From Streptomyces mirabilis (GTDB lineage Bacteria; Actinomycetota; Actinomycetes; Streptomycetales; Streptomycetaceae), in assembly GCF_039503195.1 (NCBI RefSeq), contig NZ_JBCJKP010000001.1, forward strand, positions 9,424,001-9,488,000: 64,000 nucleotides of DNA, in the 5' to 3' direction. Position numbers and translations under genes: made by a program. The notes under the pieces were generated by a model that saw only the letters and a program-made list of their open reading frames with translations, did no database searches and was not told the DNA's origin. Shown piece by piece: positions 19,669 through 44,915 of this stretch. Position 1 is the first letter of the stretch. Each line of letters opens with the position of its first letter.

Positions 19669-20705
19669 CCACAAACGCCGATGCGCTCGTGTTCTCGACC
19701 CGGAAGCTGGCCCCCGAGGACAGGACGGCCGCCTGGCAGGAGGCGCTCTCCCGCGTCCTCGTCGAGGTCGAGGTGTCGCCGGTGCCCGGCACCGACCCCT
19801 GGACGGGGACACTGCGCGCCGAGCGGTTCGGAGCCCTTCAGATCGCCACCGAGGAGACCGGCGCCCCGGTGACGATCGTGCGCACCTCGGCCGCCGTGGC
19901 CGCCGACAGCCGCTCGCATGTGCTGCTTCGCCAGCAGCTGCACGGCTCCGTCCTGTTGTTGCAGGACGGGCGGGCCACGCGGCTGGACCCGGGTGGCCTG
20001 GCGTTCCACGACGCGAGCCGACCGTTCAAGCTCGTCATCACCTCCGACCAGCGCGCCCGGATCCTGATGCTGCCGCGGGCGCTGCTCCGGCTGGAGGAAG
20101 CGCAGCTGCGCCGCCTCACCGCGACGGTCCTGGACGACGCCGAGGATGCCCCGGCCGGCCTGTTGCTGCCGCTGCTGTCCGGTCTGGCCGAGGAGTCCCT
20201 CGCCGCCGCGCCGGCCCTGCGTGAGCGGCTCGCCCGCGCCACGGCGGACCTGGTCGCGGTCCTGGCGCTGCACCAGGCGGGGGCTCAGGAGGCGGAGCAG
20301 CGGCGGCCCGGGGCAGAACTTCTGGACCGGATCAAGGCCCATATGGAGACCCGCCTGGGCGAGCCGGGACTCTCCCCGCAGGACATCGCCGACCGCAACG
20401 GCGTCTCCCTGCGCTACCTGCACCGGCTCTTCCAGCGGGAGGGGACCACCGTCAACTCCTGGGTGCGTGCCCGCCGCCTGGAGGCTGCGAGCGAGGAACT
20501 GGCCCGGCCCGACGCGGCCCGGCGCACGATCGCCGTCGTAGCGGCGCGCTGGGGCTTCGCCAGCTCCGCGCACTTCAGCCGGGTCTTCCGCGAGGCCTAC
20601 GACATGTCGCCGGTCGAGTGGCGACGAGCGTCCTGGGCGGCGCGGTGCACTGGCGGTCCGGAAGCCGTGCACGGGCGGACAAGCCTCCACGCCGCCGATT
20701 CCTAG
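19650..20705 (+). CDS. AraC-family regulator, paralog of the upstream gene
   Basis: A 351-residue protein of the same design as its neighbour: sensor domain (AAWQEALSRVLVEVEVSPV ... GGLAFHDASRPFKLVITSDQRARILMLPR) and AraC HTH (IADRNGVSLRYLHRLFQREGTTVNSWVRARRLEAASEEL ... VVAARWGFASSAHFSRVFREAYDMSPVEW). GTG 19650 is chosen because GGGGAG lies 7 bp upstream; it overlaps the previous gene by 19 bp. The shared promoter element of the stress island begins inside its 3' end (20645) and drives the esterase that follows. Confidence 0.85.
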   Translation: MAEPQLTTNADALVFSTRKLAPEDRTAAWQEALSRVLVEVEVSPVPGTDPWTGTLRAERFGALQIATEETGAPVTIVRTSAAVAADSRSHVLLRQQLHGSVLLLQDGRATRLDPGGLAFHDASRPFKLVITSDQRARILMLPRALLRLEEAQLRRLTATVLDDAEDAPAGLLLPLLSGLAEESLAAAPALRERLARATADLVAVLALHQAGAQEAEQRRPGAELLDRIKAHMETRLGEPGLSPQDIADRNGVSLRYLHRLFQREGTTVNSWVRARRLEAASEELARPDAARRTIAVVAARWGFASSAHFSRVFREAYDMSPVEWRRASWAARCTGGPEAVHGRTSLHAADS

Positions 20706-20708
20706 CCT
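20645..20708 (+). promoter_or_regulatory. Promoter E of the shared 14-mer regulon (esterase)
   Basis: Sites GTGCACTGGCGGTC (20645-20658) and GTGCACGGGCGGAC (20667-20680) are 22 bp apart. TAGCCT at 20703-20708 begins 36 bp after the proximal site. Transcription would start near 20714, 33 bp before the esterase ATG. Most of it lies in the coding end of the AraC gene. Confidence 0.65.
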
Positions 20709-20746
20709 GGATACCGATGTCAGTCACAACATCCAGGGAGCAGAAA

Positions 20747-21718
20747 ATGTCTGACGACACGTCAGTAGTCGCCCCCTTGCTGGAGCCGGAGGCGCAGGCC
20801 TTCGTGGAGGCCACCGCCAATCCGCCGTACCTGTTCGACCTCGCCCCGGCGGAGGGTCGCAAGGCCGTCGACGAGGTGCAGTCCGGCGAGATCGAGATGC
20901 CGGACATCGACGAGGAGTGGGTCACCGTCCCGGGCGGTCCGACGGGCAGCGTCCGGGCCCGGATCGTCAAGCCCGCCGGCGTCACCGGCACCCTCCCGGT
21001 GATCCTCTACATCCACGGTGCGGGCTGGGTGTTCGGCAACGCCCACACCCACGACCGCCTGGTCCGCGAACTGGCCGTGGGCGCCGAGGCCGCGGTGGTC
21101 TTCCCCGAGTACGACCTCTCGCCCGAGGCCCGCTACCCGGTCGCCATCGAGCAGAACTACACGGTCGCCCAGTGGGTCGTGCAGCAGGGCGCGTCCAAGG
21201 GCCTGGACGGCAGCCGCCTCGCGGTGGCCGGCGACTCCGTCGGCGGCAACATGACCGCCGCGCTGACCCTGATGGCCAAGGAGCGCGGCGATGTCCCGCT
21301 GCTCCAGCAGGTCCTGTTCTACCCGGTCACCGACGCGAACTTCGACACCGGCTCCTACCACCAGTTCGCGGAGGGCTACTTCCTGCGCCGCGACGGCATG
21401 CAGTGGTTCTGGGACCAGTACACGACCGACGAGGCCGACCGCGCCCAGATCACCGCCTCCCCGCTGCGCGCCACCACCGAGCAGCTCACCGGCCTGCCCC
21501 CGGCCCTGGTCATCACCGGCGAGGCCGACGTCCTGCGCGACGAGGGCGAGGCCTACGCGGGCAAGCTGCGTACGGCCGGAGTGCCCGTCACCGCCGTGCG
21601 CTTCCAGGGCATCATCCACGACTTCGTGATGCTCAACGCCCTGCGCGGCACCCACGCCGCCGAGGCCGCGCTGACGATGGCCACCCGCACGCTGCACACC
21701 GCGCTGCACGCGGGCTGA
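20747..21718 (+). CDS. HSL-type alpha/beta hydrolase (esterase)
   Basis: A 323-residue esterase with HGAGW oxyanion motif, GDSVGG nucleophile elbow (Ser164, codon TCC), the acid in ITGEADVLRDEG and the base in IIHDFVMLNALRG. No signal peptide, so cytosolic. ATG 20747 is preceded by AGGGAG at good spacing. It carries the intact Ser that the paralog at 17533 lacks. The upstream promoter has the same two-site element as dps, cydA and poxB, which puts a plain carboxylesterase into that regulon. Natural substrate unknown; family acts on short acyl esters. Confidence 0.85.
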   Translation: MSDDTSVVAPLLEPEAQAFVEATANPPYLFDLAPAEGRKAVDEVQSGEIEMPDIDEEWVTVPGGPTGSVRARIVKPAGVTGTLPVILYIHGAGWVFGNAHTHDRLVRELAVGAEAAVVFPEYDLSPEARYPVAIEQNYTVAQWVVQQGASKGLDGSRLAVAGDSVGGNMTAALTLMAKERGDVPLLQQVLFYPVTDANFDTGSYHQFAEGYFLRRDGMQWFWDQYTTDEADRAQITASPLRATTEQLTGLPPALVITGEADVLRDEGEAYAGKLRTAGVPVTAVRFQGIIHDFVMLNALRGTHAAEAALTMATRTLHTALHAG

Positions 21719-21899
21719 CGATCCGGATCGAGGTCCCCACGCGGGGCTACGCGCCACCGTCCGCCCTCCCGTGGCCTCGTCCCCACCCCTGTTCCGTAGG
21801 AAGGCAGGGGCGGGACCGACGTCTCCGTCGGCACCACCTGGTTCCGGGCGACTTGCGTGGCCGGCGTCGAGGGACGAGGCCGGCTTCTCGCATCTGCCA

Positions 21900-22067: not shown

Positions 22068-22083
22068 GCGAAGGGGCAGTGCG

Positions 22084-25465: not shown

Positions 25466-26044
25466 TCAGGCGCGGACCAGCGGTGTGTCGACCAGGTGCT
25501 CGGCCAGGAACCACGCCTGCCGTTCACCGGTCCTGATCACCTGGGACACCAGCAGGTCGTTGGTGCCGTCGTCGCCCAGCTCGGCGGTCCGTGAGGCGGC
25601 GTCGTGGGCGTCGACGAGAATGGTCTCGTGGGCCTCCAGCAGCCGTGACAGCATGGCCGGCACCTCCTCCACCCCGTCCGGGGGCCGCGGAATCGACGTG
25701 ATCTCCGCGACGTGCCTGGGGTCGCCCACCGCGACTCCGCCCAGGGACTGGACGCGTTCGGCGATGGTGTCGATGATCTCAAGCTGTTCGCCCGCGTGCT
25801 TGTCCAGGACCAGGTGCAGCTGGTAGAAGGTCGCGCCGCGCATCAGCCAGTGGTGCTTCTTGTAGAGGCCGTAGAGGATCTGCGTGTCCGCGAGGGCCTT
25901 GTTCAGTCGCTGGCAGGAGTACATCCGTGCCTCGTAGGACAGAGCGACCGGGAACTGCTTGACGGTTCCGAACTCCTGGATCACCTCGCCCTTCTGGTGC
26001 AGCCATGGCTGGCTGCCGTTCACGGGCGTGGAATTGGTGGTCAT
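25466..26044 (-). CDS. dps: Dps-family DNA-binding ferritin
   Basis: A 192-residue Dps protein. YGLYKKHHWLMRGATFYQLHLVLDKHAGEQLEIIDTIAERVQSLGG carries the ferroxidase His/Asp/Glu residues shared between subunits of the dodecamer. The C-terminus ends in VRTGERQAWFLAEHLVDT, also seen in the fragment at 21900. Dps binds DNA, oxidises Fe(II) with H2O2 and protects against oxidative stress. ATG 26044 has GGGAGG 8 bp upstream. Its promoter is half of the divergent two-site array shared with the flavin oxidoreductase. Confidence 0.9.
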   Translation of the reverse strand: MTTNSTPVNGSQPWLHQKGEVIQEFGTVKQFPVALSYEARMYSCQRLNKALADTQILYGLYKKHHWLMRGATFYQLHLVLDKHAGEQLEIIDTIAERVQSLGGVAVGDPRHVAEITSIPRPPDGVEEVPAMLSRLLEAHETILVDAHDAASRTAELGDDGTNDLLVSQVIRTGERQAWFLAEHLVDTPLVRA

Positions 26045-26084: not shown

Positions 26085-26149
26085 ACGCTAGGTGCCCGTT
26101 CGAGGGGCGGCTTGACCGGCAGTGCACGCGGTGGTGCCCGCCAGCGCAC
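26085..26149 (-). promoter_or_regulatory. Promoter A-minus of the shared 14-mer regulon (dps)
   Basis: On the minus strand: distal site GTGCGCTGGCGGGC (complement 26136-26149), proximal GTGCACTGCCGGTC (complement 26114-26127), 22 bp apart, and TAGCGT (complement 26085-26090) beginning 37 bp after the proximal site. Confidence 0.7.
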
Positions 26150-26172: not shown

Positions 26173-26236
26173 GTTCGCTCTCGGGCAGGTATTCGTGCGC
26201 TGGCGGACCAGGGCCGTTGTCGGGCCGCTCTAGCCT
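26173..26236 (+). promoter_or_regulatory. Promoter A-plus of the shared 14-mer regulon (flavin oxidoreductase)
   Basis: Distal GTTCGCTCTCGGGC (26173-26186), proximal GTGCGCTGGCGGAC (26195-26208), 22 bp apart, and TAGCCT at 26231-26236, 36 bp after the proximal site. Expected start of transcription near 26243, 40 bp before the ATG. Confidence 0.7.
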
Positions 26237-26282: not shown

Positions 26283-27650
26283 ATGAGCGCGAACGAGCAG
26301 GTGGATGTGGTGGTCGTCGGGCTGGGGCCGGGCGGCGAATACGTCGCCGGCACGCTGGCCGAAGCGGGACTGGACGTCGTGGGGATCGAGGCGGAACTTG
26401 TCGGGGGCGAATGTCCGTACTGGGCTTGTGTGCCCAGCAAGATGATGATCCGGGCCGGGAACCTGCTCGCCGAGGCGGGCCGGGTTCCCGCCCTCGCCGG
26501 TGAGGCGGTGGTGAGCCCGGACTGGACCAGGGTCGCAGGACGTATCCGCGACGAGGCCACCGACGACTGGAACGACCAGGTGGCCGCGGACCGCTTCGCG
26601 GCGAAGGGCGGGCGGCTCGTGCGGGGGAGGGGGCGTCTCGTCGGGCCGCGCCGGGTGATGGTCGGGGACCGCACGTTCGAGGCCCGGCGCGGTGTCGTCC
26701 TGGCCACCGGCACCCGCCCACGGATCCCCGCAGTCCCGGGTCTGGAAGGAACGCCGTACTGGACCAACCGGGACGCCGTGGCTGCCAAGAAGCTGCCCGC
26801 GTCGATGCTGGTTCTGGGTGGGGGCGCCATCGGCGCCGAACTCGCCCAGGTCTTCGCCCGCTTCAAGTGCGCGGTCACCGTGATCGAGGGGCAGGACGGG
26901 CTGCTGGCGCAGGAGGAGCCGGAAGCGGGGGAGTTGGCCGCGGAGGTGCTGCGGGCGGACGGCGTCACCGTCTTCACGGGCGCACGGGCGAGGCAAGTCA
27001 GCCATGACGGCACCTCGTTCACCGTCCACCTTGACGGTGATGAGCAACTGCTCAGTGCCGAACGGCTTCTGGTCGCCGCCGGACGCCACGCCGACCTGAC
27101 CCCACTGGGGGTCGACACGGTGGGGCTCGATCCGACGGCGGGAGCTGTGCCCACGGACGGGCAGATGCGGGCCGGCGAGGGGTTGTGGGCGATCGGCGAC
27201 ATCACCGGCCGTGGAGCCTTCACACACATGTCGATGTACCAGGCGGAGATCGCCGTCCGGGACATCCTCGGGCAGCCGGGTCCCGGCGCCGACTACCGCG
27301 CGTTGCCTCGTGTCACCTTCACCGATCCGGAGATCGGGGCGGTGGGGCTGACGGAACGTCAGGCGCGGGAGCGGGGGCTGCGCGTGCGCACCAGCTTGGT
27401 GACCATCGCCTCATCCACCCGCGGCTGGATCCACGGGCCGGGCAACGAGGGGTTCATCAAGCTTGTCGAGGACGCCGACCGGGGCGTCCTGATCGGCGCG
27501 ACCTCGGCGGGGCCGGCGGGAGGCGAGGTGCTCTACGGGCTGAACGTGGCCGTCCATGCCGAGGTGCCCGTCGACCGGCTTCAGCACATGATCTACACCT
27601 ATCCCACCTTCCACCGGACGATCGAGGCGGCCCTGGGAGCCCTCCGCTGA
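26283..27650 (+). CDS. FAD-dependent NAD(P)-disulfide oxidoreductase (lipoamide-dehydrogenase/mercuric-reductase type)
   Basis: A 455-residue group-I pyridine-nucleotide disulfide oxidoreductase. FAD motif VVVVGLGPGGEYVAGTLAEAG, redox pair GGECPYWACVPSK (CxxxxC), NAD(P) motif VLGGGAIGAELAQVFARF, and GLWAIGDITG. The C-terminal dimer domain ends in HMIYTYPTFHRTIEAALGAL; it carries the His and a conserved Pro but lacks extra substrate cysteines of MerA. ATG 26283 has GGAG close by. Divergent from dps; 14 bp to the ltrA pseudogene, so one transcript is likely. Substrate (a disulfide or quinone) unknown. Confidence 0.85.
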   Translation: MSANEQVDVVVVGLGPGGEYVAGTLAEAGLDVVGIEAELVGGECPYWACVPSKMMIRAGNLLAEAGRVPALAGEAVVSPDWTRVAGRIRDEATDDWNDQVAADRFAAKGGRLVRGRGRLVGPRRVMVGDRTFEARRGVVLATGTRPRIPAVPGLEGTPYWTNRDAVAAKKLPASMLVLGGGAIGAELAQVFARFKCAVTVIEGQDGLLAQEEPEAGELAAEVLRADGVTVFTGARARQVSHDGTSFTVHLDGDEQLLSAERLLVAAGRHADLTPLGVDTVGLDPTAGAVPTDGQMRAGEGLWAIGDITGRGAFTHMSMYQAEIAVRDILGQPGPGADYRALPRVTFTDPEIGAVGLTERQARERGLRVRTSLVTIASSTRGWIHGPGNEGFIKLVEDADRGVLIGATSAGPAGGEVLYGLNVAVHAEVPVDRLQHMIYTYPTFHRTIEAALGALR

Positions 27651-28827: not shown

Positions 28828-28966
28828 CCAGGCCCGCGGTGGTACCGCGTAGTTCGTCGTCCACGTTGCACATCCGATTCCCCACGACCCGCGAACGGCC
28901 GGAGCAGAGGCGGTGGAAATTGTCCACGAGCGCACCGGACTCGGCCTCACGGTGCACGGAGAGGCA

Positions 28967-29031
28967 GTGCACTGTCCGGACGCAGCCAGTGCACTGCCGG
29001 AATACTCGGGCACTTCGGCTCGAAATAGCCT
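28967..29031 (+). promoter_or_regulatory. Promoter B of the shared 14-mer regulon (amidohydrolase)
   Basis: Distal GTGCACTGTCCGGA (28967-28980), proximal GTGCACTGCCGGAA (28989-29002), 22 bp apart, and TAGCCT at 29026-29031, 37 bp after the proximal site. The leader to the amidohydrolase ATG would be about 200 nt. The rest of 28828-29241 has no gene. Confidence 0.55.
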
Positions 29032-29241
29032 GGAGGCGAAGCAGTCGCCGGGCGCAAGGCGTCCGGACCTTTGCATCGCACAGAAGTCCCACCCGTAATT
29101 CGGATCGGTTCATCGGTCCGGCGTGGGCGCAGTAACGCGCATCCCTGGTTCTCTCCCACCCGCCGCTGTCGCTCACATGGAAGTCGATCCGATGAAATCG
29201 ACGCCGTTCATTCCGCAGGAGGTTGTCGAAAGGTGTCCACG

Positions 29242-31119: not shown

Positions 31120-31121
31120 TC

Positions 31122-31159
31122 TCCCGGGAGGGGCCGGTCACGAGCCGCCCCTCCCGGGA
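31122..31159 (+). terminator. GC-rich hairpin after the amidohydrolase
   Basis: Perfect 13-bp arms 31122-31134 and 31147-31159 around a 12-nt loop, 3 bp after the stop. No T-run. It may terminate or attenuate transcription into the next gene. Confidence 0.5.
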
Positions 31160-33560: not shown

Positions 33561-35225
33561 CTACTCGACGGTTGCTGCCTGAGAAGTGGGCTTCAGCCGC
33601 AGGATGCGGGTGGCGGCAAAGGGCATCAGGTCGTGGTGCCGGTCCGGCAGGGCGATCACCAGGGCGCTGTCCGGCAGGGCGAGGCGGACACCCGTCAGCA
33701 TCCGTACCGCCGTTCGGACGTCGAGGCCGGCCGTCGGTTCGTCGAGCAGGAGGACCGCGGGTGCCCGCAGGACCGCTCTCGCGATCACCAGTCGGCGTCG
33801 CTGGCCCTGAGAGAGAGCACTGCCCAGCGGGCCCGTCGGGGTGTGGAGGGGGAGCTGCTCCAGGGCCGCGGCCGCCAGCGCGGCCCGGAGCGTGTCGTCG
33901 TCCGCGCCGGGGGCGGCCTGTCGCAGGTTCTCGGCGATGGTCGCTTCGGCGATCCAGTCTTCCGCCTCGACGAGGGTGAGCGTATCGGCGATCGCGCCGG
34001 CGGGCAGGGACTCGATGGGCACGCCACCGAGGAGCACCGCGCCGGGGGCGGCAGGGGTGATGCGTCCCGCCAGAGTCTCCAACACGGTGCTCTTCCCACT
34101 GCCGTTGGGCCCGGTGACCACAACGACGCTGCGGGGCGCGATCACGGCGGACCACAGGGTGCGGTCTTCGCCTACGCCCACGGGCACCTCGTGGGCCACC
34201 AGGGCACTTTTCGGCCCGGCGAGCTGCGGCGTCGCAGGGGATGCGGTCCTCGGCCCCTCTGGGAGCGTGCGGCCGGCCAGATCCGTCAGCCGTAGGGCGG
34301 AGTCGGTTGCCAGGCCCTGGTCGCGGAGTACCTGAGGGAGCGTCTCCATCAGTTCGTAGGCTGCCGCGACCAGCAGCACCTCGCCGATGGAGTCGGCGGC
34401 CGGCTGGGTGGACACAGGACCGGACAGGGCCAGGAGCAGCACCGCCGTCTGGCCGGCCATGGCGAGCAGCCGCAGCCGGAGCCGGGTCCGGCGCATCACC
34501 GACGCGGCCGCGGCCTCGGCCCGCCGGGCCCGGCCGAGCGCTTGCGCGACCTGATCGCGGACCAGATCGACCGCGTCCAGGCAGCGCAGTTCCGGAAGTG
34601 CGGAGCGCCCACTGAGCAGCGCGGTGCGTGCACTGGCCCACGCATCCGCGGCCGTCTGCTGATGGCCGCGGGTCCGCCGCTCGGCGGCCACTGCCGTGGC
34701 TGCGGACAGCGCGAGCAGCAGCAGTTCGGCCGCGCCTGCCGGCGGACTCGCCACCAGGAGCAGAGTGACGACGACGGTGGCGGTCAGGCCGATGCCGGCC
34801 AGCGGCGGGACGACCTGGCCGGCCATCCCGCCCACCGCGCCGACGTCGCTGGTGAGCCGGGTCATCAGGGCGCCGTCACGTTGGTTGCGCAGTTCGCGCG
34901 CCGGCACGGTGGTCGCGGTGCGGACCAGTCGTGAGCGCAGCGAGACGGTCGCGCCGAGCAGGGCGCCATGGCTGACCAGGCGCTCCGAGTAGCGCAGACC
35001 GGTGCGGCCCAGGGCGAGCGCGCGGACCGTCCCCGAGGGGTACATCCACGACCAGGTGGTGTTCGCCTGTGCGGTGACCACCGCGCAGGAGGTGAGGAAC
35101 CAGCCGGACACGCCCAACAGGCCGGCGGCGCAGAGTTCGGCGGTCCCGGCGAGCACCGCCGCGAACAGCAGGTCGCGCCGTACCCCGCGGTCCGCCGCCG
35201 TCCACAGCAGTCTGAACGCGGTCAC
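33561..35225 (-). CDS. cydC: Thiol reductant ABC exporter subunit CydC
   Basis: A 554-residue fused membrane-ATPase half-transporter. Membrane part 1-300; nucleotide domain with Walker A VTGPNGSGKST, signature LSQGQRRRLVIARAVL and Walker B VLLLDEPTAGLD. With CydD it exports cysteine/glutathione-type thiols to the periplasmic side and is needed to assemble heme b/d oxidase CydAB. GTG 35225 overlaps the cydD stop by 4 bp (35222-35225). It is the last gene of a cydA-B-D-C operon. Confidence 0.9.
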   Translation of the reverse strand: MTAFRLLWTAADRGVRRDLLFAAVLAGTAELCAAGLLGVSGWFLTSCAVVTAQANTTWSWMYPSGTVRALALGRTGLRYSERLVSHGALLGATVSLRSRLVRTATTVPARELRNQRDGALMTRLTSDVGAVGGMAGQVVPPLAGIGLTATVVVTLLLVASPPAGAAELLLLALSAATAVAAERRTRGHQQTAADAWASARTALLSGRSALPELRCLDAVDLVRDQVAQALGRARRAEAAAASVMRRTRLRLRLLAMAGQTAVLLLALSGPVSTQPAADSIGEVLLVAAAYELMETLPQVLRDQGLATDSALRLTDLAGRTLPEGPRTASPATPQLAGPKSALVAHEVPVGVGEDRTLWSAVIAPRSVVVVTGPNGSGKSTVLETLAGRITPAAPGAVLLGGVPIESLPAGAIADTLTLVEAEDWIAEATIAENLRQAAPGADDDTLRAALAAAALEQLPLHTPTGPLGSALSQGQRRRLVIARAVLRAPAVLLLDEPTAGLDVRTAVRMLTGVRLALPDSALVIALPDRHHDLMPFAATRILRLKPTSQAATVE

Positions 35226-36991
35226 ACTGTCTCCCTGATCCGGGACACCCGTCCCTGGTTCAACCGAACGATGTCGTCGGCGATTTCGAGCAGTGCCGGG
35301 CTGTGTGTCGTGAGCAGCACGGTGCGGCTGCGCGAAAGTGTCCGAATGGCGGCGATGACGCGGGCCTCGCCGTCCGGGTCCAGATGGGCCGTGGGTTCGT
35401 CCAGGCACAGCAGTGGCGTGTCGCGGAGCAGCGCGCGGACCAGTACCAGCTGCTGCATCTGTCCGGAGGACAGTCCCCAGCCGCGCTCCCCGACTCGGGT
35501 CGCCAGGCCCTGGGGGAGTGCGGCCAGTAGGTCCTCGAAGCCCAGTGCCGCGAATGCCGCGGTCAGTTGCTCGTCGTCGGCGTAACGGCGGGCCAGCAGC
35601 AAGTTGTCGCGGAGCGTTCCCGGGAGGAGGTAGGAGGGCTGGCCGGCCCACGCTGTCAGAGCGGGTGAGGCGGGCAGGACTTCGGAACCGGTGGTGTGCA
35701 GGCACCGCCCGTGGTCCGGTTCGCGCAGGCCTGCCGCAACGGAGAGCAGGGTGGTCTTGCCGGCGCCGCTGGGCCCGCCGATGGCCACGATCGAACCCGG
35801 CCGAACAGTCAGGGTGACGCTGTCCAGGGCCGCTTCGTCGCGACCCGGGTATCGAACCCCGACGTCGTCCAGGATCACACCGGCCGGACCCGGCCGACTC
35901 GGACGGTGCGAGGCGGGTACTCGCGCCGGGGGACCGTCGACCGCCGCGGCCGGAGCGTGGTCGACGATCTCCGAGAGCAGCTCGGCCGCCGCGGCCGCCT
36001 CGGCACGGGCGTGGTAGCCGCGGGCGAGTTCCCGGGCGGGGGCGAAGTACGGCGGTGTCAGGACGAGCACGAACAGCGCGGTGCCCAGACTCATGCTGGA
36101 CGGGACCACCGGCAGGTCGAGGTAGCCGAGCAGGGCGAGCCCGCAGTACGTCGCGACGACAGCCATGGCCACCGTGATGAGGAGCTCGATCCAGGCGGTC
36201 GAAAGGAAGGCCACCCGCAGTACGGTCTGGGTGCGCCCGGCCAGTTCCCTGTCGGCTGCTTCGGTTGCCCGTACCGCTTCCTCGCCGGCCCCGAGGCCGA
36301 CAAGTGTGGGCAGTCCGCGCAGTTGGTCCAGCAGGTGGGTGCTCAGCGTCCGGGTTGCGGTGAGCTGGGCGTGCACGGCGGCGCGGGTGCCCAGGCCGAT
36401 CACCTTCAGGTTGAACGGCAAAAGCGGGGTCGCCAGCACCAGCATCAGCGCCACGGCCCAACTGCCGGCCGTGACGGCGGCCAGGACGATGCCGCTGCCC
36501 AGCAGCATCGCCCGCCGGGCGGGGACGTACGTCGTCAACCACTGGTTCAGCCTGCCCACCTCGCTGTCGAGCGCCTCACCGAGAGCGGCGTCGGACATCT
36601 CCGCGCCGGGCACGCCGACTGCCGGAAGGGCGCCCAGGAGAAGGCGGGCACGCAGGTGGTCCTGGACGGCGGCCGCTCCCTCGTCGGCGACCCGGTCGGC
36701 CGCCGCCAGCAGGACCGCGCGCAGCAGCAGACCCGCGGCGACCAGCGCCGTACCGGAGAGCACCGGAGCCAGGGCAACGCCCCCGTGCGGGGCGCGCAGG
36801 GCGGCCTGGGCCGCCCTGCCCAGCCCAGCGGCCCACAGGACATGGCCCGCGGCCGCGAGTCCCCGCAGTGTGCCGGCTCGCCGGAACGCCGGTTCGCCGG
36901 CTGCTGCCCATGCGGTCAGCAGCCCGGCTGTCCGCTGCTGACCTTCGTCGTCCCGGCCGAGCCGGGCGAGCTGGTCGGGGATGTCGGTCAC
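35222..36991 (-). CDS. cydD: Thiol reductant ABC exporter subunit CydD
   Basis: A 589-residue partner of CydC with the same plan: membrane domain, then Walker A AIGGPSGAGKTTLL, a shortened signature LSSGQMQQLVLVRALLRD and Walker B LLCLDEPTAHLD. GTG 36991 overlaps the cydB stop by 4 bp. The pair is split here; some actinobacteria fuse cydC and cydD into one gene. Function follows from context: assembly of the bd oxidase encoded upstream. Confidence 0.9.
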   Translation of the reverse strand: MTDIPDQLARLGRDDEGQQRTAGLLTAWAAAGEPAFRRAGTLRGLAAAGHVLWAAGLGRAAQAALRAPHGGVALAPVLSGTALVAAGLLLRAVLLAAADRVADEGAAAVQDHLRARLLLGALPAVGVPGAEMSDAALGEALDSEVGRLNQWLTTYVPARRAMLLGSGIVLAAVTAGSWAVALMLVLATPLLPFNLKVIGLGTRAAVHAQLTATRTLSTHLLDQLRGLPTLVGLGAGEEAVRATEAADRELAGRTQTVLRVAFLSTAWIELLITVAMAVVATYCGLALLGYLDLPVVPSSMSLGTALFVLVLTPPYFAPARELARGYHARAEAAAAAELLSEIVDHAPAAAVDGPPARVPASHRPSRPGPAGVILDDVGVRYPGRDEAALDSVTLTVRPGSIVAIGGPSGAGKTTLLSVAAGLREPDHGRCLHTTGSEVLPASPALTAWAGQPSYLLPGTLRDNLLLARRYADDEQLTAAFAALGFEDLLAALPQGLATRVGERGWGLSSGQMQQLVLVRALLRDTPLLCLDEPTAHLDPDGEARVIAAIRTLSRSRTVLLTTHSPALLEIADDIVRLNQGRVSRIRETV

Positions 36992-38265
36992 TTCTCGGCT
37001 GCCTGGAGGTTGAAATCACCTGCGGCTGCGGAGCGGCGGTCGGACCGGATCCAGAGGGCGAGTGCGGTGACGGAGAAGACGGCGACACCGGCTGGGTCGA
37101 TCCAGGCGCGCACGCCACCGAAGATGTCCTGGGAGACGGCGGCCACCGCGACGGCCAGGAGGGTCAGAAGCACGCGCCGGACGACGACGGCCGCCCACGG
37201 ACCGTCTTCCGTGGCCGACGCCACCGCCGTGGGCCGCTCCGCGGCAGTCGTGCTGTCGGACGGGACCGCCGCTTCGGTGCCGGCCGTTGGCTGGGCGAAC
37301 TTCCCGCGGAAGACCCACCACGCGTAGATGTTGTAGGTGAGGACGACCGGCATGCACCCGCCCACCCCGATGAGCAGGAACAGCTGTGAACCGTGCGGGC
37401 TGGCCGCGGCGTGCACGGTCAGGCCGGGCGGGACGACGACGGGTGCGGTGGCGGCGACGATCGCGAGCAGCCCTGCGGCCTCCGTACCGGCCACGGCGAC
37501 GAACGGACGCCAGTCCGGCCGGCGGCCGAAGCCGTACCAGGCGATCGAGGCACAGACCACCGCCACCGCCACCGCGAGCCCGAACAGGGTCGCGCGGAGC
37601 GGCTGGTCGAAGCGCAGATGCTGCGGGTCGGCGACGCGGAGCCCGAATCCCAGGACCAGGCCGGCCGCCGCGACCGCCACGAGCAGCGGCCGGCCCAGGC
37701 GGCCCGCGCGGTCGTGGGCGGTGCCCGTGGTCTTGTCCTGCAGCCATGCGGCACCTGCCAGCAGGTAGACGGCCACCAGCCCCAGGGCGCACAGCATGCT
37801 GTAGGGCGTCAGCCAGTCCCGGGTGCCCCCGGTGAACACCCCGCCGCGGTGGGGCAGTCCAGACAGGACGCCTCCGGCCACGAGGCCCTGGCACACAGTG
37901 GCCACCAGGGACGAGATTCCGAAGACGAGGCCCCAGCCGCGCCGATAGTCGGGGGCGGCGCTCTGCAGCTCTATGGCCGTGCCGCGCAGCACGATCGCCA
38001 GCAGCATGACCACGAGCGGCAGGTAGACGCCCGGCAGCACGGTGGCGTAGACACCGGGCAGGCCCGCCCACAGAGCCACGCCCGCCAGGATGATCCAGCT
38101 CTCGTTGGCGTCCCAGGCGGTCGCGATCAGTTCGTTGTACTCCTTGCGCCGCTGGTCGCTGCGGTCGAACAGGCTCAGGATGCCGATGCCCAGGTCGTAA
38201 CCGTCGAGCAGCACATAGGCGCCGAGTGCGAGCAGGACCAAGCCGTATGACGCGTACTCAAGCAT
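36988..38265 (-). CDS. cydB: Cytochrome bd ubiquinol oxidase subunit II (CydB)
   Basis: A 425-residue multi-spanning protein beginning MLEYASYGLVLLALGAYVLLDGYDLGIGIL (the CydB signature with the D-G-Y-D-L-G motif), followed by NELIATAWDANESWIILAGVALWAGLPGVYATVL. It pairs with CydA in the O2 reductase. It overlaps cydA by 8 bp and cydD by 4 bp. The C-terminal ~50 residues are less conserved. Confidence 0.92.
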   Translation of the reverse strand: MLEYASYGLVLLALGAYVLLDGYDLGIGILSLFDRSDQRRKEYNELIATAWDANESWIILAGVALWAGLPGVYATVLPGVYLPLVVMLLAIVLRGTAIELQSAAPDYRRGWGLVFGISSLVATVCQGLVAGGVLSGLPHRGGVFTGGTRDWLTPYSMLCALGLVAVYLLAGAAWLQDKTTGTAHDRAGRLGRPLLVAVAAAGLVLGFGLRVADPQHLRFDQPLRATLFGLAVAVAVVCASIAWYGFGRRPDWRPFVAVAGTEAAGLLAIVAATAPVVVPPGLTVHAAASPHGSQLFLLIGVGGCMPVVLTYNIYAWWVFRGKFAQPTAGTEAAVPSDSTTAAERPTAVASATEDGPWAAVVVRRVLLTLLAVAVAAVSQDIFGGVRAWIDPAGVAVFSVTALALWIRSDRRSAAAGDFNLQAAEK

Positions 38266-39622
38266 GGCTGACCTCCGGGGGGTGGACAGTGGTGTCGGCG
38301 TCGGTCACCAGGTGCTCGGGGCCGGTCCGCACCGTGCGGACGATGGAGCGGATCCACAGCCCGAGCAGGAGCGCGTAGACGGTGACGAAGCCGATGAGGC
38401 TCGCGAGCGCCGCGCCGAGGGAGAGGTGCGAAACGGCTTCACTGGTCCGGATCAGGCCGTAGACGACCCAGGGCTGCCGGCCCGTCTCCGCGGTGATCCA
38501 GCCGCCGCTGATGGCCACGACACCGGCGGGGGCCATCCAGACCATCAGCCGGAGAAACCGCCGGGCCGTGTACAGCCTGCCGCGCAGCCGCAACACCAGC
38601 CCGGCGAAGGCCATGCCGAACATCGCCAGCGCGGTGAAGTACATCGCCCGGAAGCCGTAGAAGGCGGACCACATGTTGGGGCGGTCGTCCTTCGGTGTCT
38701 GCAGCAGTCCGGGGACTTCCGCCTTTCCGGACAGGTCCTTGCCGATGACGGCGCCCAGGTGCGGTATCTCGACATGGACCTTGTTCTCGCCCTTGTCCGT
38801 GTCGGGCACCACGAGCAGGTTGTAGCCGTTGTTGTCGGTCTTCCAGTTGCCCTCGAAGGCTTCGAGTTTCGCGGGCTGGTGTGCACCCATGAACGCGGCG
38901 GTGGCATCGCCCACGTACAGCTGTACGGGCATCAGGACCGCCAGCACCCCGAGAGCGATCGACAGCGTGCGACGCGCGAAGGGCAGCGCTCGCCGCTTGA
39001 CCAGGTACCAGGCGGCGATCCCGCCGATGAACCAACCGGCACTGATCAGTACCGCCAACAGAATGTGCGGGTACCGGTAGGAGAACGCCGGGTTGAACAA
39101 CACATGCCACCAGTTGCTCGCCCGGAACTGGCCGTTGACCTCGGTGAACCCCACGGGGTCCTGCATCCAGCTGTTGGCGGAGAGGATCCACGTCGTGGAC
39201 AGCAGCGTGCCGACGACGAGCATCCAGCAGGCCAACGCCATGGTCCGGGGACGCACCCGGCCGTCGCCGTACAGCATGATGCCGATGAACCCGGCCTCCA
39301 GGAAGAAGGCCGTGATGACCTCCATTCCGATCGTGACACCGAGGATCGGGCCGACCGCGTGAGCGTAGCTTCCCCAGTTGAGACCGAATTCGAAGGTCAT
39401 GACGGTTCCGGCGACTACTCCGAGGCCGAATCCGACGGCGAATATCTTCTTCCAGAAGCGGAATATCTGAAGGTACAGCGGATTTCCGGTCTTGAGGTGG
39501 GCCGTGTACATCACGGCCAGAAAGACGGAGAGTCCGACAGTCAGCGCGGGAAAGCTCATGTGAAAGACCGCGGTGATGGCGAACTGCCATCGCGAGATCT
39601 CCACCACTGCGGGCGAGGCCAC
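38258..39622 (-). CDS. cydA: Cytochrome bd ubiquinol oxidase subunit I (CydA)
   Basis: A 454-residue CydA. EISRWQFAITAVFHMSFPALTVGLS carries the heme b595 His; GLNWGSYAHAVGPILGVTIGMEVITAFFLEAGFIGIMLYG holds the conserved Glu pair; GWITAETGRQPWVVYG is the family signature near the quinol site. The enzyme oxidises quinol with very high O2 affinity and is used under microaerobic or NO stress. GTG 39622 has AGAGGAG 6 bp upstream. It heads cydABDC. Its promoter is one arm of a divergent two-site array; a Rex operator was not found. Confidence 0.92.
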   Translation of the reverse strand: MASPAVVEISRWQFAITAVFHMSFPALTVGLSVFLAVMYTAHLKTGNPLYLQIFRFWKKIFAVGFGLGVVAGTVMTFEFGLNWGSYAHAVGPILGVTIGMEVITAFFLEAGFIGIMLYGDGRVRPRTMALACWMLVVGTLLSTTWILSANSWMQDPVGFTEVNGQFRASNWWHVLFNPAFSYRYPHILLAVLISAGWFIGGIAAWYLVKRRALPFARRTLSIALGVLAVLMPVQLYVGDATAAFMGAHQPAKLEAFEGNWKTDNNGYNLLVVPDTDKGENKVHVEIPHLGAVIGKDLSGKAEVPGLLQTPKDDRPNMWSAFYGFRAMYFTALAMFGMAFAGLVLRLRGRLYTARRFLRLMVWMAPAGVVAISGGWITAETGRQPWVVYGLIRTSEAVSHLSLGAALASLIGFVTVYALLLGLWIRSIVRTVRTGPEHLVTDADTTVHPPEVSHA

Positions 39623-39812: not shown

Positions 39813-39877
39813 ACCGTAGGGCCGGCCGGTGGACACCCTTTGCCCCTGTGCGCATCGCTCGTGTCCCCGCAGCGCAC
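39813..39877 (-). promoter_or_regulatory. Promoter D-minus of the shared 14-mer regulon (cydABDC)
   Basis: Minus strand: distal GTGCGCTGCGGGGA (complement 39864-39877), proximal ATGCGCACAGGGGC (complement 39842-39855, weak), 22 bp apart, TACGGT (complement 39813-39818) 37 bp after the proximal start. Leader to cydA would be ~180 nt. Confidence 0.5.
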
Positions 39878-40046: not shown

Positions 40047-41735
40047 ATGAGTACTGCACCGTCACCGAAAGACCGTCCTGAGCCGGATTCTCCCTGGGCC
40101 CCGCTCGCGGCGCGCGTCTTCCGCGCGCTGTGGATAGCGCAACTGGTTTCCAACATCGGCAGTTGGATGCAGACGGTGGGCGCCCAGTGGCTGCTGGTCG
40201 GGCACGGCGCTGCGCTGGTAACGCTCGTCCAGACCGCCTCCAGTCTCCCCGTTGTGCTGCTGGCCCTGCCCTCGGGCGTGCTGGCAGACCGCTACGACCG
40301 TCGTACGGTGCTGCTGGTCGCCCAGTTCGCCATGCTCGCCGTCTCCACCGCGCTGACCGTCCTGGCGTTCGCGGACGCGCTCACCCCGGAGCTGCTGCTC
40401 GGCCTCACCTTCCTGTTGGGATGCGGCACCGCGCTGATGGGCCCGGCCTGGCAGGCGATCCAGCCGGAGCTCGTGGAGCGCCGCCAGTTGGGACAGGCGG
40501 CCGCGCTCGGCGCCGTGAACATGAATCTGGCACGCGCCGTCGGTCCGGCACTCGGCGGAGCGGTGGTCGCGGCGGCGGGCGCGGGCTGGGTATTCGCCTT
40601 CAACGCCGCGTCCTACCTCGGTATCGCAGCCGTTCTCACGCTGTGGCGGCGGCCCCGGACCCTAGTGCCCACGGCTCAGGGCGAGAAGCTCCTGACGGCT
40701 CTGCACGCGGGCCGTCGCTACGTGTGGTACGCGCCCGGAGTCCGCCGAGTCCTGCTGCGTACGCTGCTGTTCATACCCGGCGGCGCCGCGCTGTGGTCAC
40801 TGCTTCCCCTGGTCGCGAGCCGTTCCCTGGGCCTGGGCTCGGGAGGGTACGGGCTGCTGCTCGGCGCGGTCGGTGCCGGAGCCGTCGGCGGGGCCTTCGT
40901 ACTGCCTGCCGTCCGCCGCGCTCTCGGCGCCAACGGCACTCTGGCCGCGGGGGCCCTCGTCTTCGCCGCCGTGCTCGCGGTGCTGGCCACCACCCGGCTC
41001 CCCTGGCTCGCGGTGGGCGCGCTACTGCCCGCCGGACTGGCCTGGATCGGCGTACTGTCCACCCTCAACACGGCCCTCCAGACGCGGCTGCCCGGCTGGG
41101 TCAGGGCCCGGGGACTCGCCGTCTACCTCCTGGTCTTCCAGGGCGGGCAGGCACTGGCGGCACCCCTGTGGGGCGCGCTGGCCGATGGGCTGGGCCTGAC
41201 CGTCTCGCTCCTGGTCGGCAGCGGGCTGCTCGTGGCCGGCGCGGTGACCGTGCGCCGCTGGCCGCTGCACGGCACGGACGCCATCGATCCGACTCCGTCC
41301 GACCACTGGCCGGTTCCGCCCCTGCTGTTCGAGCCCGGACCCGCCGACGGCCCCGTGCTGGTCTCCGTCGCCTACCGGGTCGGCCCCGGGAACAGAGCCG
41401 CCTTCACCGACTGCATGGACAATGTGGCCCGCTCGCGCCGCCGCACGGGAGCCCTCACCTGGGGCCTCTACCAGGACGGCAACGATCCGGAGCGATTCAT
41501 CGAGAACTACCTGGTCGCCTCATGGGCGGAGCACCTCGCCCAGCACCACAGCCGGATCACGGCCACCGACCGCCGTCACGAAGAACGGGCCCGCCGCCTG
41601 CTCGTACCGGGCACCGTCCCGGAGGTGACCCATGCCTTCGATGCCGCCGAGGGTCCTGTCGTGCCCGAGACAGAGACTGGCGCCACCGCCGCCGACCAGG
41701 TCAAGCCCGACGCCCCGCTCGGCAACACGCCATAG
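40047..41735 (+). CDS. MFS transporter (DHA3/EntS-like) with a C-terminal monooxygenase-like domain
   Basis: A 562-residue protein. Residues ~20-410 form a 12-segment MFS transporter (VFRALWIAQLVSNIGSWMQTVGAQWLL ... GVLADRYDRRTVLL ... LPGWVRARGLAVYLLVFQGGQALAAPLWGALADG). The last ~110 residues are a separate domain (VSVAYRVGPGNRAAFTDCMDNVARSRRRTGALTWGLYQDGNDPERFIENYLVASWAEHLAQHHSRITATD), resembling ABM-type antibiotic-biosynthesis monooxygenases. ATG 40047 fits the domain start. Divergent from cydA on a shared promoter array. Exported substrate unknown. Confidence 0.85.
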   Translation: MSTAPSPKDRPEPDSPWAPLAARVFRALWIAQLVSNIGSWMQTVGAQWLLVGHGAALVTLVQTASSLPVVLLALPSGVLADRYDRRTVLLVAQFAMLAVSTALTVLAFADALTPELLLGLTFLLGCGTALMGPAWQAIQPELVERRQLGQAAALGAVNMNLARAVGPALGGAVVAAAGAGWVFAFNAASYLGIAAVLTLWRRPRTLVPTAQGEKLLTALHAGRRYVWYAPGVRRVLLRTLLFIPGGAALWSLLPLVASRSLGLGSGGYGLLLGAVGAGAVGGAFVLPAVRRALGANGTLAAGALVFAAVLAVLATTRLPWLAVGALLPAGLAWIGVLSTLNTALQTRLPGWVRARGLAVYLLVFQGGQALAAPLWGALADGLGLTVSLLVGSGLLVAGAVTVRRWPLHGTDAIDPTPSDHWPVPPLLFEPGPADGPVLVSVAYRVGPGNRAAFTDCMDNVARSRRRTGALTWGLYQDGNDPERFIENYLVASWAEHLAQHHSRITATDRRHEERARRLLVPGTVPEVTHAFDAAEGPVVPETETGATAADQVKPDAPLGNTP

Positions 41736-42983: not shown

Positions 42984-44726
42984 TCAGGGGCGCGGAAGGT
43001 TCCGCAGGTTTGTCCGTGCCAGATGGATCATCCGCCCCACTCCTCCGCTGAGGACGGTCCGGCTGGCGGACAGGGCGAAGCCGGTCACCTGTTCAGAGGT
43101 GATCTTGGGGGGTACTGCAAGGGCGTTGGGGTCGGTGACCACATCGACCAGTGCCGGCCCTTCGTGAGCGAAGGCCTCGCGCAGGGCGTCGCGCACGTCC
43201 CCGGGCTTGTCGACCCGGATGCCGCGTGCGCCGGCGGCGGTGGCGATGGCCGCGTAGTCGGTGTGCGGGTAACCGGTGCCGTACGGAGGGAGACCGTCGA
43301 CCATCATCTCCAGGTCGACCATGCCCAGGGACGAGTTGTTGAAGACGACCACCTTCACCGGCAGGCCGTACTGGACGAGGGTCAGGAAGTCGCCCATCAG
43401 CATGGAGAACCCGCCGTCGCCCGAGAGGGAGACCACCTGTCGGCCGCGGTCGAGGAACTGCGCGCCGATGGCCTGGGGCAGTGCGTTGGCCATCGAGCCG
43501 TGGACGAACGACCCGAGGATACGGCGGCGTCCGTTCGGCGTCAGATACCGGGCGGCCCAGACGCAGCACATGCCGGTGTCCACGGTGAACACCGCGTCGT
43601 CGGCGGCCTCCTCGTCCAGCACGGACGCCACGTACTCGGGGTGGATCGGAATGTGCTTCTCGACCTTGCGCGTGTAGGCGCTCACGGCGCCTTCGAGCGC
43701 GTGCAGGTGACGGTCCAGCATGCGGTCGAGGAACCGGCGGGACGGCTTCTCCCGAACCTCCGGGGTCAGGCACTTGAGCGTCTCGCGGACGTCCCCCCAC
43801 ACCGCGAGGTCCAAGTGCGTTCGCCGGCCCAGCCGTTCGGGCTGGATGTCGACCTGGACGGTCCGCACGTCGCGGGGCAGGAACTCCGTGTAGGGGAAGT
43901 CGGTGCCCAGGAGCAGCAGCAGGTCGCACTCGTGCATCGCCTGGTAGGCGGCGCCGTATCCCAGGAGTCCGGACATCCCGACGTCGTACGGATTGTCGTA
44001 CTGGATGTGCTCCTTGCCGCGCAGCGCGTGGCCCACCGGGGCCTTGACCTTCTCGGCGAAGGCCATCACCTCCGCATGGGCACCCTCGACGCCCCGGCCG
44101 CAGAAGACCGTCACCTTCTTCGCGGCGTCCACGAGCTGGACCAGACGCGCCAGTTCCTCGTCGCCGGGACGGACGGCGGGCCGATCCAGCGGAATCGCGA
44201 GTTCGGCGCCGGTGTCCGGGGATTCCTGGGAGGCGATGTCCCCGGGCATGGCCACGACCGACACGCCTCGCCTGCCGACCGCGTGCTGGATCGCCGTCTG
44301 CACCACACGGGGCATCTGGTGGCGCGAGGAAACCAGTTCCGAGTAGTGACTGCACTCTTCGAACAACCGGTCCGGATGTGTCTCCTGGAAGTACCCGGTG
44401 CCGATCTCGCTGCTGGGGATCTGCGCGGCCAGCGCGAGCACCGGTGCCATCGAACGGTGTGCGTCGAACAGGCCGTTGACCAGGTGTAGATTGCCCGGGC
44501 CGCAGGATCCCGCGCACGCGGCCAGCCGGCCGGTGAGCTGTGCCTCGGCGCCGGCGGCGAAGGCGGCGACCTCCTCGTGCCGGACCTGGACCCATTCGAG
44601 GGCGTCGTGCCGCCTGACCGCGTCGACGACCGGGTTCAGGCTGTCGCCGACGACGCCGTACAGCCGGCGCACCCCGGCGCGGGCCAGGAGGTCGACGTAC
44701 TGCTCGGCAACGGTCTGCTGGGGCAT
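42984..44726 (-). CDS. poxB: Pyruvate oxidase / pyruvate dehydrogenase (quinone)
   Basis: A 580-residue thiamine-diphosphate enzyme. N-terminal catalytic Glu in WVQVRHEEVAAFAAGAEAQLTG, middle FAD-binding domain, C-terminal ThDP motif GDGGFSMLMGDFLTLVQYGLPVKVVVFNN. It decarboxylates pyruvate to acetate + CO2 and passes electrons to quinone, feeding the same quinol pool used by the cytochrome bd oxidase. ATG 44726 has AGGAG upstream. A divergent alpha/beta hydrolase pseudogene shares its two-site promoter region. Confidence 0.85.
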   Translation of the reverse strand: MPQQTVAEQYVDLLARAGVRRLYGVVGDSLNPVVDAVRRHDALEWVQVRHEEVAAFAAGAEAQLTGRLAACAGSCGPGNLHLVNGLFDAHRSMAPVLALAAQIPSSEIGTGYFQETHPDRLFEECSHYSELVSSRHQMPRVVQTAIQHAVGRRGVSVVAMPGDIASQESPDTGAELAIPLDRPAVRPGDEELARLVQLVDAAKKVTVFCGRGVEGAHAEVMAFAEKVKAPVGHALRGKEHIQYDNPYDVGMSGLLGYGAAYQAMHECDLLLLLGTDFPYTEFLPRDVRTVQVDIQPERLGRRTHLDLAVWGDVRETLKCLTPEVREKPSRRFLDRMLDRHLHALEGAVSAYTRKVEKHIPIHPEYVASVLDEEAADDAVFTVDTGMCCVWAARYLTPNGRRRILGSFVHGSMANALPQAIGAQFLDRGRQVVSLSGDGGFSMLMGDFLTLVQYGLPVKVVVFNNSSLGMVDLEMMVDGLPPYGTGYPHTDYAAIATAAGARGIRVDKPGDVRDALREAFAHEGPALVDVVTDPNALAVPPKITSEQVTGFALSASRTVLSGGVGRMIHLARTNLRNLPRP

Positions 44727-44763
44727 GACTCTCCTCGAAGTGCTCTGTCCTGAGTCCCCCGTC

Positions 44764-44827
44764 AGGCTAGGAGGCGCCGCTCCGGCGGCTTGCCCGCCAG
44801 CGCACGGCTCGGTGCCCGACAGCGCAC
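44764..44827 (-). promoter_or_regulatory. Promoter C-minus of the shared 14-mer regulon (poxB)
   Basis: Minus strand: distal GTGCGCTGTCGGGC (complement 44814-44827), proximal GTGCGCTGGCGGGC (complement 44792-44805), 22 bp apart, TAGCCT (complement 44764-44769) 36 bp after the proximal start. Confidence 0.7.
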
Positions 44828-44851
44828 TCGTCCCGGCTCTCCGGTCGCCGG

Positions 44852-44915
44852 GTTCCTTGGCGGACCTTGGCCCGTGCGCTCCCGGACAAGCCGCTCCGCG
44901 ACTGGGTCCTAGGTT
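44852..44915 (+). promoter_or_regulatory. Promoter C-plus of the shared 14-mer regulon (hydrolase pseudogene)
   Basis: Distal GTTCCTTGGCGGAC (44852-44865), proximal GTGCGCTCCCGGAC (44874-44887), 22 bp apart, TAGGTT at 44910-44915, 36 bp after the proximal start. Transcription would start near 44922. Confidence 0.6.

What the first reader, a model, noticed from the sequence alone, without database searches (positions are those of the whole stretch)
20645..44915. A shared two-site promoter signal links eight promoters of a redox/stress island
Eight promoters each carry two 14-mers close to GTGCRCTGNCGGRC, starting exactly 22 bp apart (two helical turns), with TAGCCT, TAGCGT, TAGGTT or TACGGT starting 36-37 bp after the proximal site. 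They serve an esterase (20645), dps and a flavin disulfide oxidoreductase (26085-26236), an amidohydrolase (28967), cydABDC and an MFS transporter (39813-39966), and poxB and a hydrolase pseudogene (44764-44915). Two sites plus a fixed distance to -10 is strong evidence for a class-II-type activator acting on all. I could not match it to Rex or to the DevR/DosR (OsdR) box.
Basis: seen in the sequence. Interest (0 to 1): 0.9.

Follow-up and report, generated by a model that had tools for sequence, protein, structure and literature searches.

The report
AraC-type stress regulon in Streptomyces
Eight promoters in a Streptomyces stress-gene island carry the same pair of protein-binding sites, the pair recurs before the same genes in many other streptomycetes, and the likely switch is an AraC/XylS-type activator encoded beside them.

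Summary
All eight pairs lie where stated, exactly 22 bp apart, with a TANNNT box 36 or 37 bp after the proximal site, far above chance. Most own-genome hits fall in this island. In 22 of 25 fetched 13-20-kb loci the pair and box precede the same genes in changed orders; 63 of 80 named esterase promoters have it, as do five cydA promoters.

"Class-II-type activator" can be sharpened: the layout is that of dimeric AraC/XylS activators. AraC-subfamily genes lie in 37 of 63 esterase loci with the pair and 0 of 17 without; 14 of those 17 carry a MarR-type gene instead. PF14525 (1-12 per genome) lies within 20 kb of the pair in 15 of 24 genomes, 0.56 expected. The window's candidates are 18625-19668 and 19689-20705. 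Binding, activation and signal are not shown, and the linkage is not established after correction for ancestry. My literature searches found no description of this regulon. It is a new regulon of a known regulator kind.

The parts
20645..20708 (+). Pair 1 plus -10: distal 20645-20658, proximal 20667-20680, TAGCCT 20703-20708; before the HSL-type esterase; overlaps the 3' end of the upstream AraC gene
   Evidence: 63 of 80 named esterase loci carry the pair
26085..26149 (-). Pair 2 plus -10: distal 26149-26136, proximal 26127-26114, TAGCGT 26090-26085; before dps
   Evidence: 31 Dps-type downstream genes
26173..26236 (+). Pair 3 plus -10: distal 26173-26186, proximal 26195-26208, TAGCCT 26231-26236; before the flavin disulfide oxidoreductase
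   Evidence: 15 such downstream genes
28967..29031 (+). Pair 4 plus -10: distal 28967-28980, proximal 28989-29002, TAGCCT 29026-29031; before the amidohydrolase operon
   Evidence: 36 such downstream genes
39813..39877 (-). Pair 5 plus -10 (weakest proximal site of the eight): distal 39877-39864, proximal 39855-39842, TACGGT 39818-39813; before cydABDC
   Evidence: scores 27-36 before cydA orthologues in L189-L192
39902..39966 (+). Pair 6 plus -10: distal 39902-39915, proximal 39924-39937, TACGGT 39961-39966; before the MFS_3 transporter
   Evidence: 12 such downstream genes
44764..44827 (-). Pair 7 plus -10: distal 44827-44814, proximal 44805-44792, TAGCCT 44769-44764; before poxB
   Evidence: 11 such downstream genes
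44852..44915 (+). Pair 8 plus -10 (weakest distal site of the eight): distal 44852-44865, proximal 44874-44887, TAGGTT 44910-44915; before an apparently broken alpha/beta hydrolase
   Evidence: no such downstream gene among the 213 sites; seen again only in the 97%-identical plasmid copy L173
18625..19668 (+). AraC-family regulator 1 (AraC_binding_2 + HTH_18), candidate regulator
   Evidence: linkage
19689..20705 (+). AraC-family regulator 2 (AraC_binding_2 + HTH_18), leading local candidate, directly upstream of the esterase
   Evidence: linkage
20747..21718 (+). esterase / HSL-type alpha/beta hydrolase (target); ATG at 20747 read from sequence
25466..26044 (-). dps (target); ATG at 26044 read from sequence
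26283..27650 (+). pyridine nucleotide-disulphide oxidoreductase (target)
29233..33205 (+). amidohydrolase_3, isochorismatase, DoxX, DUF1275 (target, taken as one operon from spacing and strand)
33561..39607 (-). cydABDC (target operon)
40167..41735 (+). MFS_3 transporter (target); start codon uncertain
42984..44726 (-). poxB, pyruvate dehydrogenase (quinone) (target)
28922..28957 (-). Relic pair without a -10 box and without a gene called downstream on that strand; probably left from a divergent esterase promoter as in relatives
   Evidence: divergent esterase/amidohydrolase arrangement in L040, L044, L051, L052, L057
11515..11573 (-). Degenerate further pair before an MFS gene; stronger in plasmid copy L173

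Best explanation
These are eight operators of one regulon. Two monomers of an AraC/XylS-family activator bind head to tail on one face of the DNA, one on each GTGCRCTGnCGGrC site 22 bp apart. The proximal site ends at the -35 region (about -49 to -33 if the -10 box starts at -12), so bound protein can recruit RNA polymerase to promoters that have a TAGCGT-like -10 but no conserved -35 beyond the CAA that closes the proximal site. The regulator is most likely one of the AraC-subfamily proteins encoded beside the regulon: in this window the two genes at 18625-20705, with a further relative at 8.017 Mb beside a second esterase copy. The targets (Dps, flavin disulfide oxidoreductase, PoxB, cytochrome bd, amidohydrolase/isochorismatase/DoxX, esterases, MFS) suggest a response to a redox-active or toxic small molecule. 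Shown: the sites, spacing, box, conservation and genetic linkage. Inferred: binding by AraC proteins, activation, and the signal.
For: Sites, spacing and box. Loci chosen on the pair alone still have TANNNT at 36-37 bp in 23 of 28 (counted by eye over L010-L037; L031 and L037 overlap). Over 105 loci (2.04 Mb) 218 hits at 22 bp against at most 4 at any other spacing from 16 to 29 bp and 0 in reversed sequence (the matrix was trained on 25 of these loci). Same target genes in differing order in 22 of 25 loci. 63 of 80 named esterase promoters, reversed control maximum -0.4. Scores 27-42 upstream of cydA in L188-L192. Regulator: AraC subfamily in 37 of 63 loci with the pair and 0 of 17 without. 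In an unbiased clustering of all genes in those loci the AraC cluster (36 of 63 against 0 of 17) is the only regulator cluster in more than 11 loci with the pair, while a MarR-type cluster marks loci without it (14 of 17 against 0 of 63, one member identified). PF14525 within 20 kb of the pair in 15 of 24 genomes, 0.56 expected. 12 of 17 loci of the closest orthologues of the 8.017-Mb AraC (own copy included) hold a pair (up to 6 mismatches) plus box in the fetched stretch of about 1.5 kb either side. An AraC gene lies next upstream of cydABDC in L190 and L192 and one small SsgA-like gene away in L191. Architecture: P. fluorescens MtlR, an AraC/XylS activator, uses AGTGC-N5-AGTAT-N7-AGTGC-N5-AGGAT, two 15-bp blocks at -72..-58 and -50..-36, i.e. 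22 bp apart (PMC4514859, passages). XylS uses TGCA-N6-GGNTA repeats 21 bp apart (PMC4514859, passages; PMC5481539, passages). Window AraC 2 models with mean pLDDT 90.3 and pTM 0.63; best fold match is the AraC-like activator CuxR.
Against: No binding or expression data. 26 of 63 loci with the pair have no AraC gene in the stretch held (mostly 10 kb either side, some shorter). Non-regulator island genes are associated with the pair too, e.g. a neighbouring hydrolase in 42 of 63 against 2 of 17, so linkage alone does not prove the regulator. The linked AraC proteins are diverged (32-84% identity among the longer ones), so several paralogues would have to read one operator code, or only one is the true regulator. 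The association is not established after correction for ancestry: only 2 independent pairs on well-supported branches. Three of 12 window-type cydA loci have no hit above 14 and two only weak hits of 19-21. No AraC gene was found as the gene downstream of a pair, so no autoregulation was seen. SARP and LuxR-type regulator genes also occur near some sites.
Confidence: 0.8

Rival explanations
1. A SARP (BTAD) regulator, small or AfsR-like, binds the repeats, since SARP repeats are 11 or 22 bp apart and large SARP genes occur in the window (53484-56654) and near several AraC genes.
For: 22-bp period fits; BTAD proteins lie near sites in L056 and L060 and a cluster whose checked member has BTAD in 11 of 63 loci with the pair.
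Against: [quoted passage not shown] Here the proximal 14-mer ends 22-23 bp before the -10. The BTAD cluster is not significantly associated (11 of 63 against 0 of 17, p=0.11). The BTAD proximity search printed a cut list, so it was not scored.
Confidence: 0.06
2. A distant global regulator (response regulator, CRP-like or other) encoded elsewhere controls the regulon, and the AraC genes are only passengers of the island.
For: 26 of 63 loci with the pair lack an AraC gene in the stretch held; other island genes are linked as well; the linked AraC proteins are diverged; DevR-type activators also use tandem sites (recalled).
Against: AraC linkage recurs in different gene orders and beside different targets: esterase, amidohydrolase operon, cydABDC. 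Loci without the pair mostly have MarR and no AraC. Few pairs were found elsewhere in the own genome, unlike a global regulon.
Confidence: 0.12
3. The pairs are a chance or compositional artefact of GC-rich sequence, or spread as a mobile repeat.
For: A few pattern hits without a box occur (L020, L021, L023, L036), about as many as the 3 reversed-pattern hits.
Against: Reversed and Markov controls empty at the matrix thresholds used; fixed -10; sequence between the two sites and after them is little conserved, so it is not a copied element.
Confidence: 0.01

Closest known systems
MtlR/PmtlE of Pseudomonas fluorescens (AraC/XylS family)
   Same: Two 15-bp direct repeats 22 bp apart at -72..-58 and -50..-36, half-site beginning AGTGC (PMC4514859, passages)
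   Different: Other bases in the second half of each site; the paper treats one mannitol promoter, here many promoters of stress genes
XylS/Pm of Pseudomonas putida TOL plasmid
   Same: Dimer on two 15-bp direct repeats with TGCA then GG, RNA polymerase contact (PMC5481539, passages; full site formula in PMC4514859)
   Different: 21-bp period, different sequence, aromatic catabolism; effector here unknown
FeaR (NCBIfam NF007243) and CuxR (PDB 5nla)
   Same: Nearest named models of the window AraC proteins by profile (163.6 and 143.3 bits) and, for AraC 2, by structure and PDB sequence
   Different: Below the FeaR cut-off of 199 bits; 23% identity to CuxR in the fold alignment; ligand not predicted
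SARP/AfsR operators in Streptomyces
   Same: Direct repeats 11 or 22 bp apart at weak promoters
   Different: 3' repeat 8 bp from -10; here 22-23 bp (passages)
OsdR/DevR regulon
   Same: Stress/dormancy-type targets
   Different: 16-bp palindrome AGGGCCGATCGGCCCT (PMC5069765) instead of direct repeats

Membership tests
AraC/XylS-type activator promoters | Two direct half-sites about 21-22 bp apart | tested here: met
   22 bp is the only clearly enriched spacing among those tried
AraC/XylS-type activator promoters | Proximal half-site next to or overlapping the -35, about 36-38 bp before the -10 | tested here: met
   37 bp in 50 and 36 bp in 15 of 65 sites (the box was a selection criterion); 23 of 28 without that criterion. 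Transcription starts not mapped
AraC/XylS-type activator promoters | Regulator with two helix-turn-helix motifs (HTH_18) encoded nearby | tested here: met
   window; relatives: 37 of 63 loci with the pair, 15 of 24 genomes within 20 kb
AraC/XylS-type activator promoters | Direct binding and activation by that regulator | not testable with these tools
   needs EMSA, footprinting and mutants
SARP operators | Repeats 11 or 22 bp apart | tested here: met
SARP operators | 3' repeat 8 bp upstream of the -10 | tested here: not met
   against PMC10936776 (passages): 22-23 bp here
OsdR/DevR boxes | Palindrome AGGGCCGATCGGCCCT | tested here: not met
   compared by eye: the matrix is a direct repeat with another consensus; published consensus; no OsdR matrix was run
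Rex operators | Rex operator palindrome | not tested
FeaR equivalog (NF007243) | Score over curated cut-off 199 bits | tested here: not met
   163.6 and 143.3 bits

The most novel reading that the evidence does not exclude
A set of diverged, often paired AraC/XylS paralogues in streptomycetes shares one operator code. Together they run a movable regulon that couples DNA protection (Dps), thiol/flavin redox chemistry, quinone-linked respiration (PoxB with a second cytochrome bd) and hydrolases, and individual target genes switch regulators (AraC to MarR) by swapping promoters.
Probability: 0.4. Interest if true: 0.75.

Novelty: new member of a known kind. Interest (0 to 1): 0.6.

Why it matters
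It defines, from sequence alone, a conserved promoter code that predicts transcription starts and co-regulated genes across many Streptomyces and a few relatives (Embleya, Actinacidiphila, Streptacidiphilus). It names candidate regulators for a rare cytochrome bd operon and for poxB and dps-type genes. Every target promoter and regulator can be tested directly.

Tried and rejected
OsdR/DevR box: published consensus is a palindrome and does not match. SARP: spacing to -10 fails and association is weak; the BTAD proximity search gave a cut list and was not scored. The first own-genome pattern with a box used the wrong gap and found nothing. The test of association on the esterase tree was inconclusive for lack of supported branches (one row, L153, was dropped by the program). 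L140 was counted among the 17 loci without the pair, but it has a pair 1.7 kb upstream of the esterase with an ISL3-type transposase between; it has no AraC gene, so moving it would give 37 of 64 against 0 of 16. The pair at G000:C1:10506906 (L183) has a TAGGCT box and lies before a DUF5709 gene; left as a possible extra member. Literature searches that showed no description of this regulon: (search listings only).
Full report
Observation. Reading the five stretches shows all eight pairs at the stated places. Boxes start 36 bp (20645+, 26173+, 44827-, 44852+) or 37 bp (26149-, 28967+, 39877-, 39902+) after the proximal site. With a matrix of both sites and the box the eight score 37-56 and the next window hit 18. 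Sixty first-order Markov sequences of window length reached at most 9.8. The matrix was trained on relatives plus the window.

Extent in the genome. The window lies in an 11.1-Mb genome. A 34-base pattern with <=3 mismatches gave 9 hits, 7 in the window: six of the eight pairs and one reverse-strand overlap of pair 4; the reversed pattern gave 1. A 38-base pattern gave 11 hits, 9 in the window: all eight pairs and 28957-; the reversed pattern gave 2. Outside the window the credible ones are the promoter of a second esterase copy at 8.017 Mb (99% identical protein) and a pair with TAGGCT before a DUF5709 gene at 10.507 Mb. Patterns limited to 3 mismatches miss weak pairs, so this is a lower bound.

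Conservation. In 295 genomes of the genus (own included) 26 have a pair with <=1 mismatch: 34 matches, four of them own, against 3 for the reversed pattern. Of 28 loci chosen on the pair alone, 23 have TANNNT at 36-37 bp (counted by eye; L031 and L037 overlap). I fetched 25 stretches of 13-20 kb, 24 from other genomes and one from the own genome; the 26th pair-bearing genome, G084, was left out for its 3.4-kb contig. In 22 of 25 the pair and box stand before an orthologue of a window target, in changed orders; not in L055, L061 and L062. Sixty-five distinct box-bearing sites gave the consensus GTGCRCTGnCGG(r)(c) - 22 bp - GTGCRCTGnCGGrCAA, with boxes TAGCGT 28, TAGCCT 12, TACGGT 8, TAACGT 8 and others 9, offset 37 (50) or 36 (15). 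The box was a selection criterion there. The columns after CAA, where a -35 would continue, carry little information. A one-time scan of named genomes with the esterase kept the best 80 of more loci. In 63 of 80 the pair lies upstream of the esterase (score 24-55); the other 17 score below -23, and the reversed control never exceeds -0.4. Over all 105 loci (2.04 Mb) 218 hits score above 28 at 22 bp, at most 4 at any other spacing from 16 to 29 bp, and none in reversed sequence. The 213 distinct sites above 22 precede esterase 73, amidohydrolase 36, Dps 31, flavin disulfide oxidoreductase 15, MFS 12, PoxB 11, LtrA 6, LuxA-like 5, SsgA 2, isochorismatase 1, GNAT 1, other 6, and no called gene within 700 bp 14. 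The esterase count is inflated because 80 loci were fetched by it.

Cytochrome bd. The window-type cydA is rare: 12 of 295 genomes at E<=1e-200, 9 of them among the 26 pair-bearing genomes. Scores of 27-42 stand upstream of cydA in L188-L192 (L188 is the window's own) and 24.3 in L196. In L195 the pair precedes dps just upstream of cydA. L193 and L194 have only weak hits of 19-21 about 1 kb upstream, and L197-L199 have none above 14; the reversed control stays below -10.

Regulator. The window encodes two AraC_binding_2 + HTH_18 proteins directly upstream of the esterase. Among proteins near the sites one AraC cluster recurs in 11 of 25 loci. In the 80 esterase loci AraC-subfamily genes occur in 37 of 63 with the pair and 0 of 17 without, Fisher p=4e-6, not corrected for ancestry. 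Clustering all genes without choosing families gives AraC 36 of 63 against 0 of 17, and a MarR-type cluster 0 of 63 against 14 of 17 (one member of each unlabelled cluster identified). So most esterases without the pair sit beside a different regulator. Other island genes are associated too, for example a neighbouring hydrolase (42 of 63 against 2 of 17), so this test shows linkage, not function. One of the 17, L140, has a pair farther up, cut off by a transposase gene. On the best esterase tree the pair changes 11 times, but starred branches force only 2; only 2 independent pairs stand on starred branches, AraC then going the same way or not differing, never the opposite way. PF14525 has 1-12 matches per genome in 24 pair-bearing genomes (G184 and G208 were left out because their pair lacked a box). 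One lies within 20 kb of the pair in 15 of 24, expected 0.56 (positions copied by hand, some matches below the Pfam cut-off). For the AraC at 8.017 Mb, 38 of 295 genomes have a match at E<=1e-60; 17 of the 26 pair-bearing genomes are among them, against 21 of 269 others. Of its 17 closest loci (61% identity or more, own copy included) 12 hold a pair (up to 6 mismatches) plus box within the fetched stretch, one more a pair with TACTGT, four none; of 13 more distant ones 3 do; the reversed control had none. An AraC gene lies next upstream of cydABDC in L190 and L192, and with one small SsgA-like gene between in L191. The linked AraC proteins are diverged, so which paralogue reads the operator is open.

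Mechanism and comparison. If the -10 begins at -12, the proximal site starts near -49 and the distal near -71. P. fluorescens MtlR (AraC/XylS) uses blocks at -72..-58 and -50..-36 with consensus AGTGC-N5-AGTAT-N7-AGTGC-N5-AGGAT, a 22-bp period (PMC4514859, passages). XylS uses TGCA-N6-GGNTA repeats with a 21-bp period (PMC4514859, passages; PMC5481539, passages). Our consensus has TGCR at the start and GG near the end, but GG is one base nearer than in XylS. SARPs need the 3' repeat 8 bp from the -10 (PMC10936776, passages); here it is 22-23 bp. The OsdR consensus is a palindrome (PMC5069765, passages). A model of AraC 2 has mean pLDDT 90.3 and pTM 0.63, with a strand-rich N-terminal half and C-terminal helices. 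The best fold and sequence match is CuxR, 5nla, a c-di-GMP-responsive activator by recall; ligand residues were not compared. NCBIfam's nearest is FeaR, below cut-off.

Function (inference). Dps, a flavin disulfide reductase, quinone-linked PoxB and cytochrome bd with hydrolases and a transporter fit a response to a redox-active or toxic compound. No tool result identifies the signal.

Novelty. Searches of the held library listed no paper on this regulon; most subscription papers are not in it. The kind of control is known; the regulon and its operator code appear new.

Noticed in passing
window 20774-21719 and L060 (G000:C1 about 8.016 Mb): The esterase coding sequence is 98.8% identical in DNA to the second copy in the same genome, while its flanks match a 97%-identical plasmid locus (L173) and not that second copy. 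This looks like gene conversion of the coding sequence only.
   Followed up: partly
window 10662-23844 and 40998-45535: The linear plasmid NZ_CP108366.1 (Streptomyces sp. NBC_01340) carries both stretches at about 93-98% identity but, in the part fetched (L173), lacks 23845-40997; its FMN reductase and MFS genes are cut at the junction.
   Followed up: partly
window 11624-14452 (-) and 15323-17428 (+): Two large LuxR-type regulators lie near the AraC pair; similar LuxR or SARP genes accompany AraC genes in some other loci.
   Followed up: partly
window 28922-28957 (-): Relic tandem pair without a -10 box and without a called gene downstream, likely left from a divergent esterase promoter seen in relatives.
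   Followed up: partly
window 45011-45566 (+): The hydrolase after pair 8 appears broken; a longer relative of 288 aa (87% identity to the fragment) exists in L047.
   Followed up: no
L174 (NZ_CP108010.1): A conjugative Streptomyces plasmid carries a Dps-type gene and this esterase side by side, with no pair scoring above 16 in the 23-kb stretch.
   Followed up: no
L140 8324-9933: An ISL3-type transposase gene separates a pair from the esterase, a natural promoter disruption.
   Followed up: no
window 53484-56654 (-): A 1056-aa protein with BTAD and a weak AAA_16 match, SARP-like by domains.
   Followed up: no
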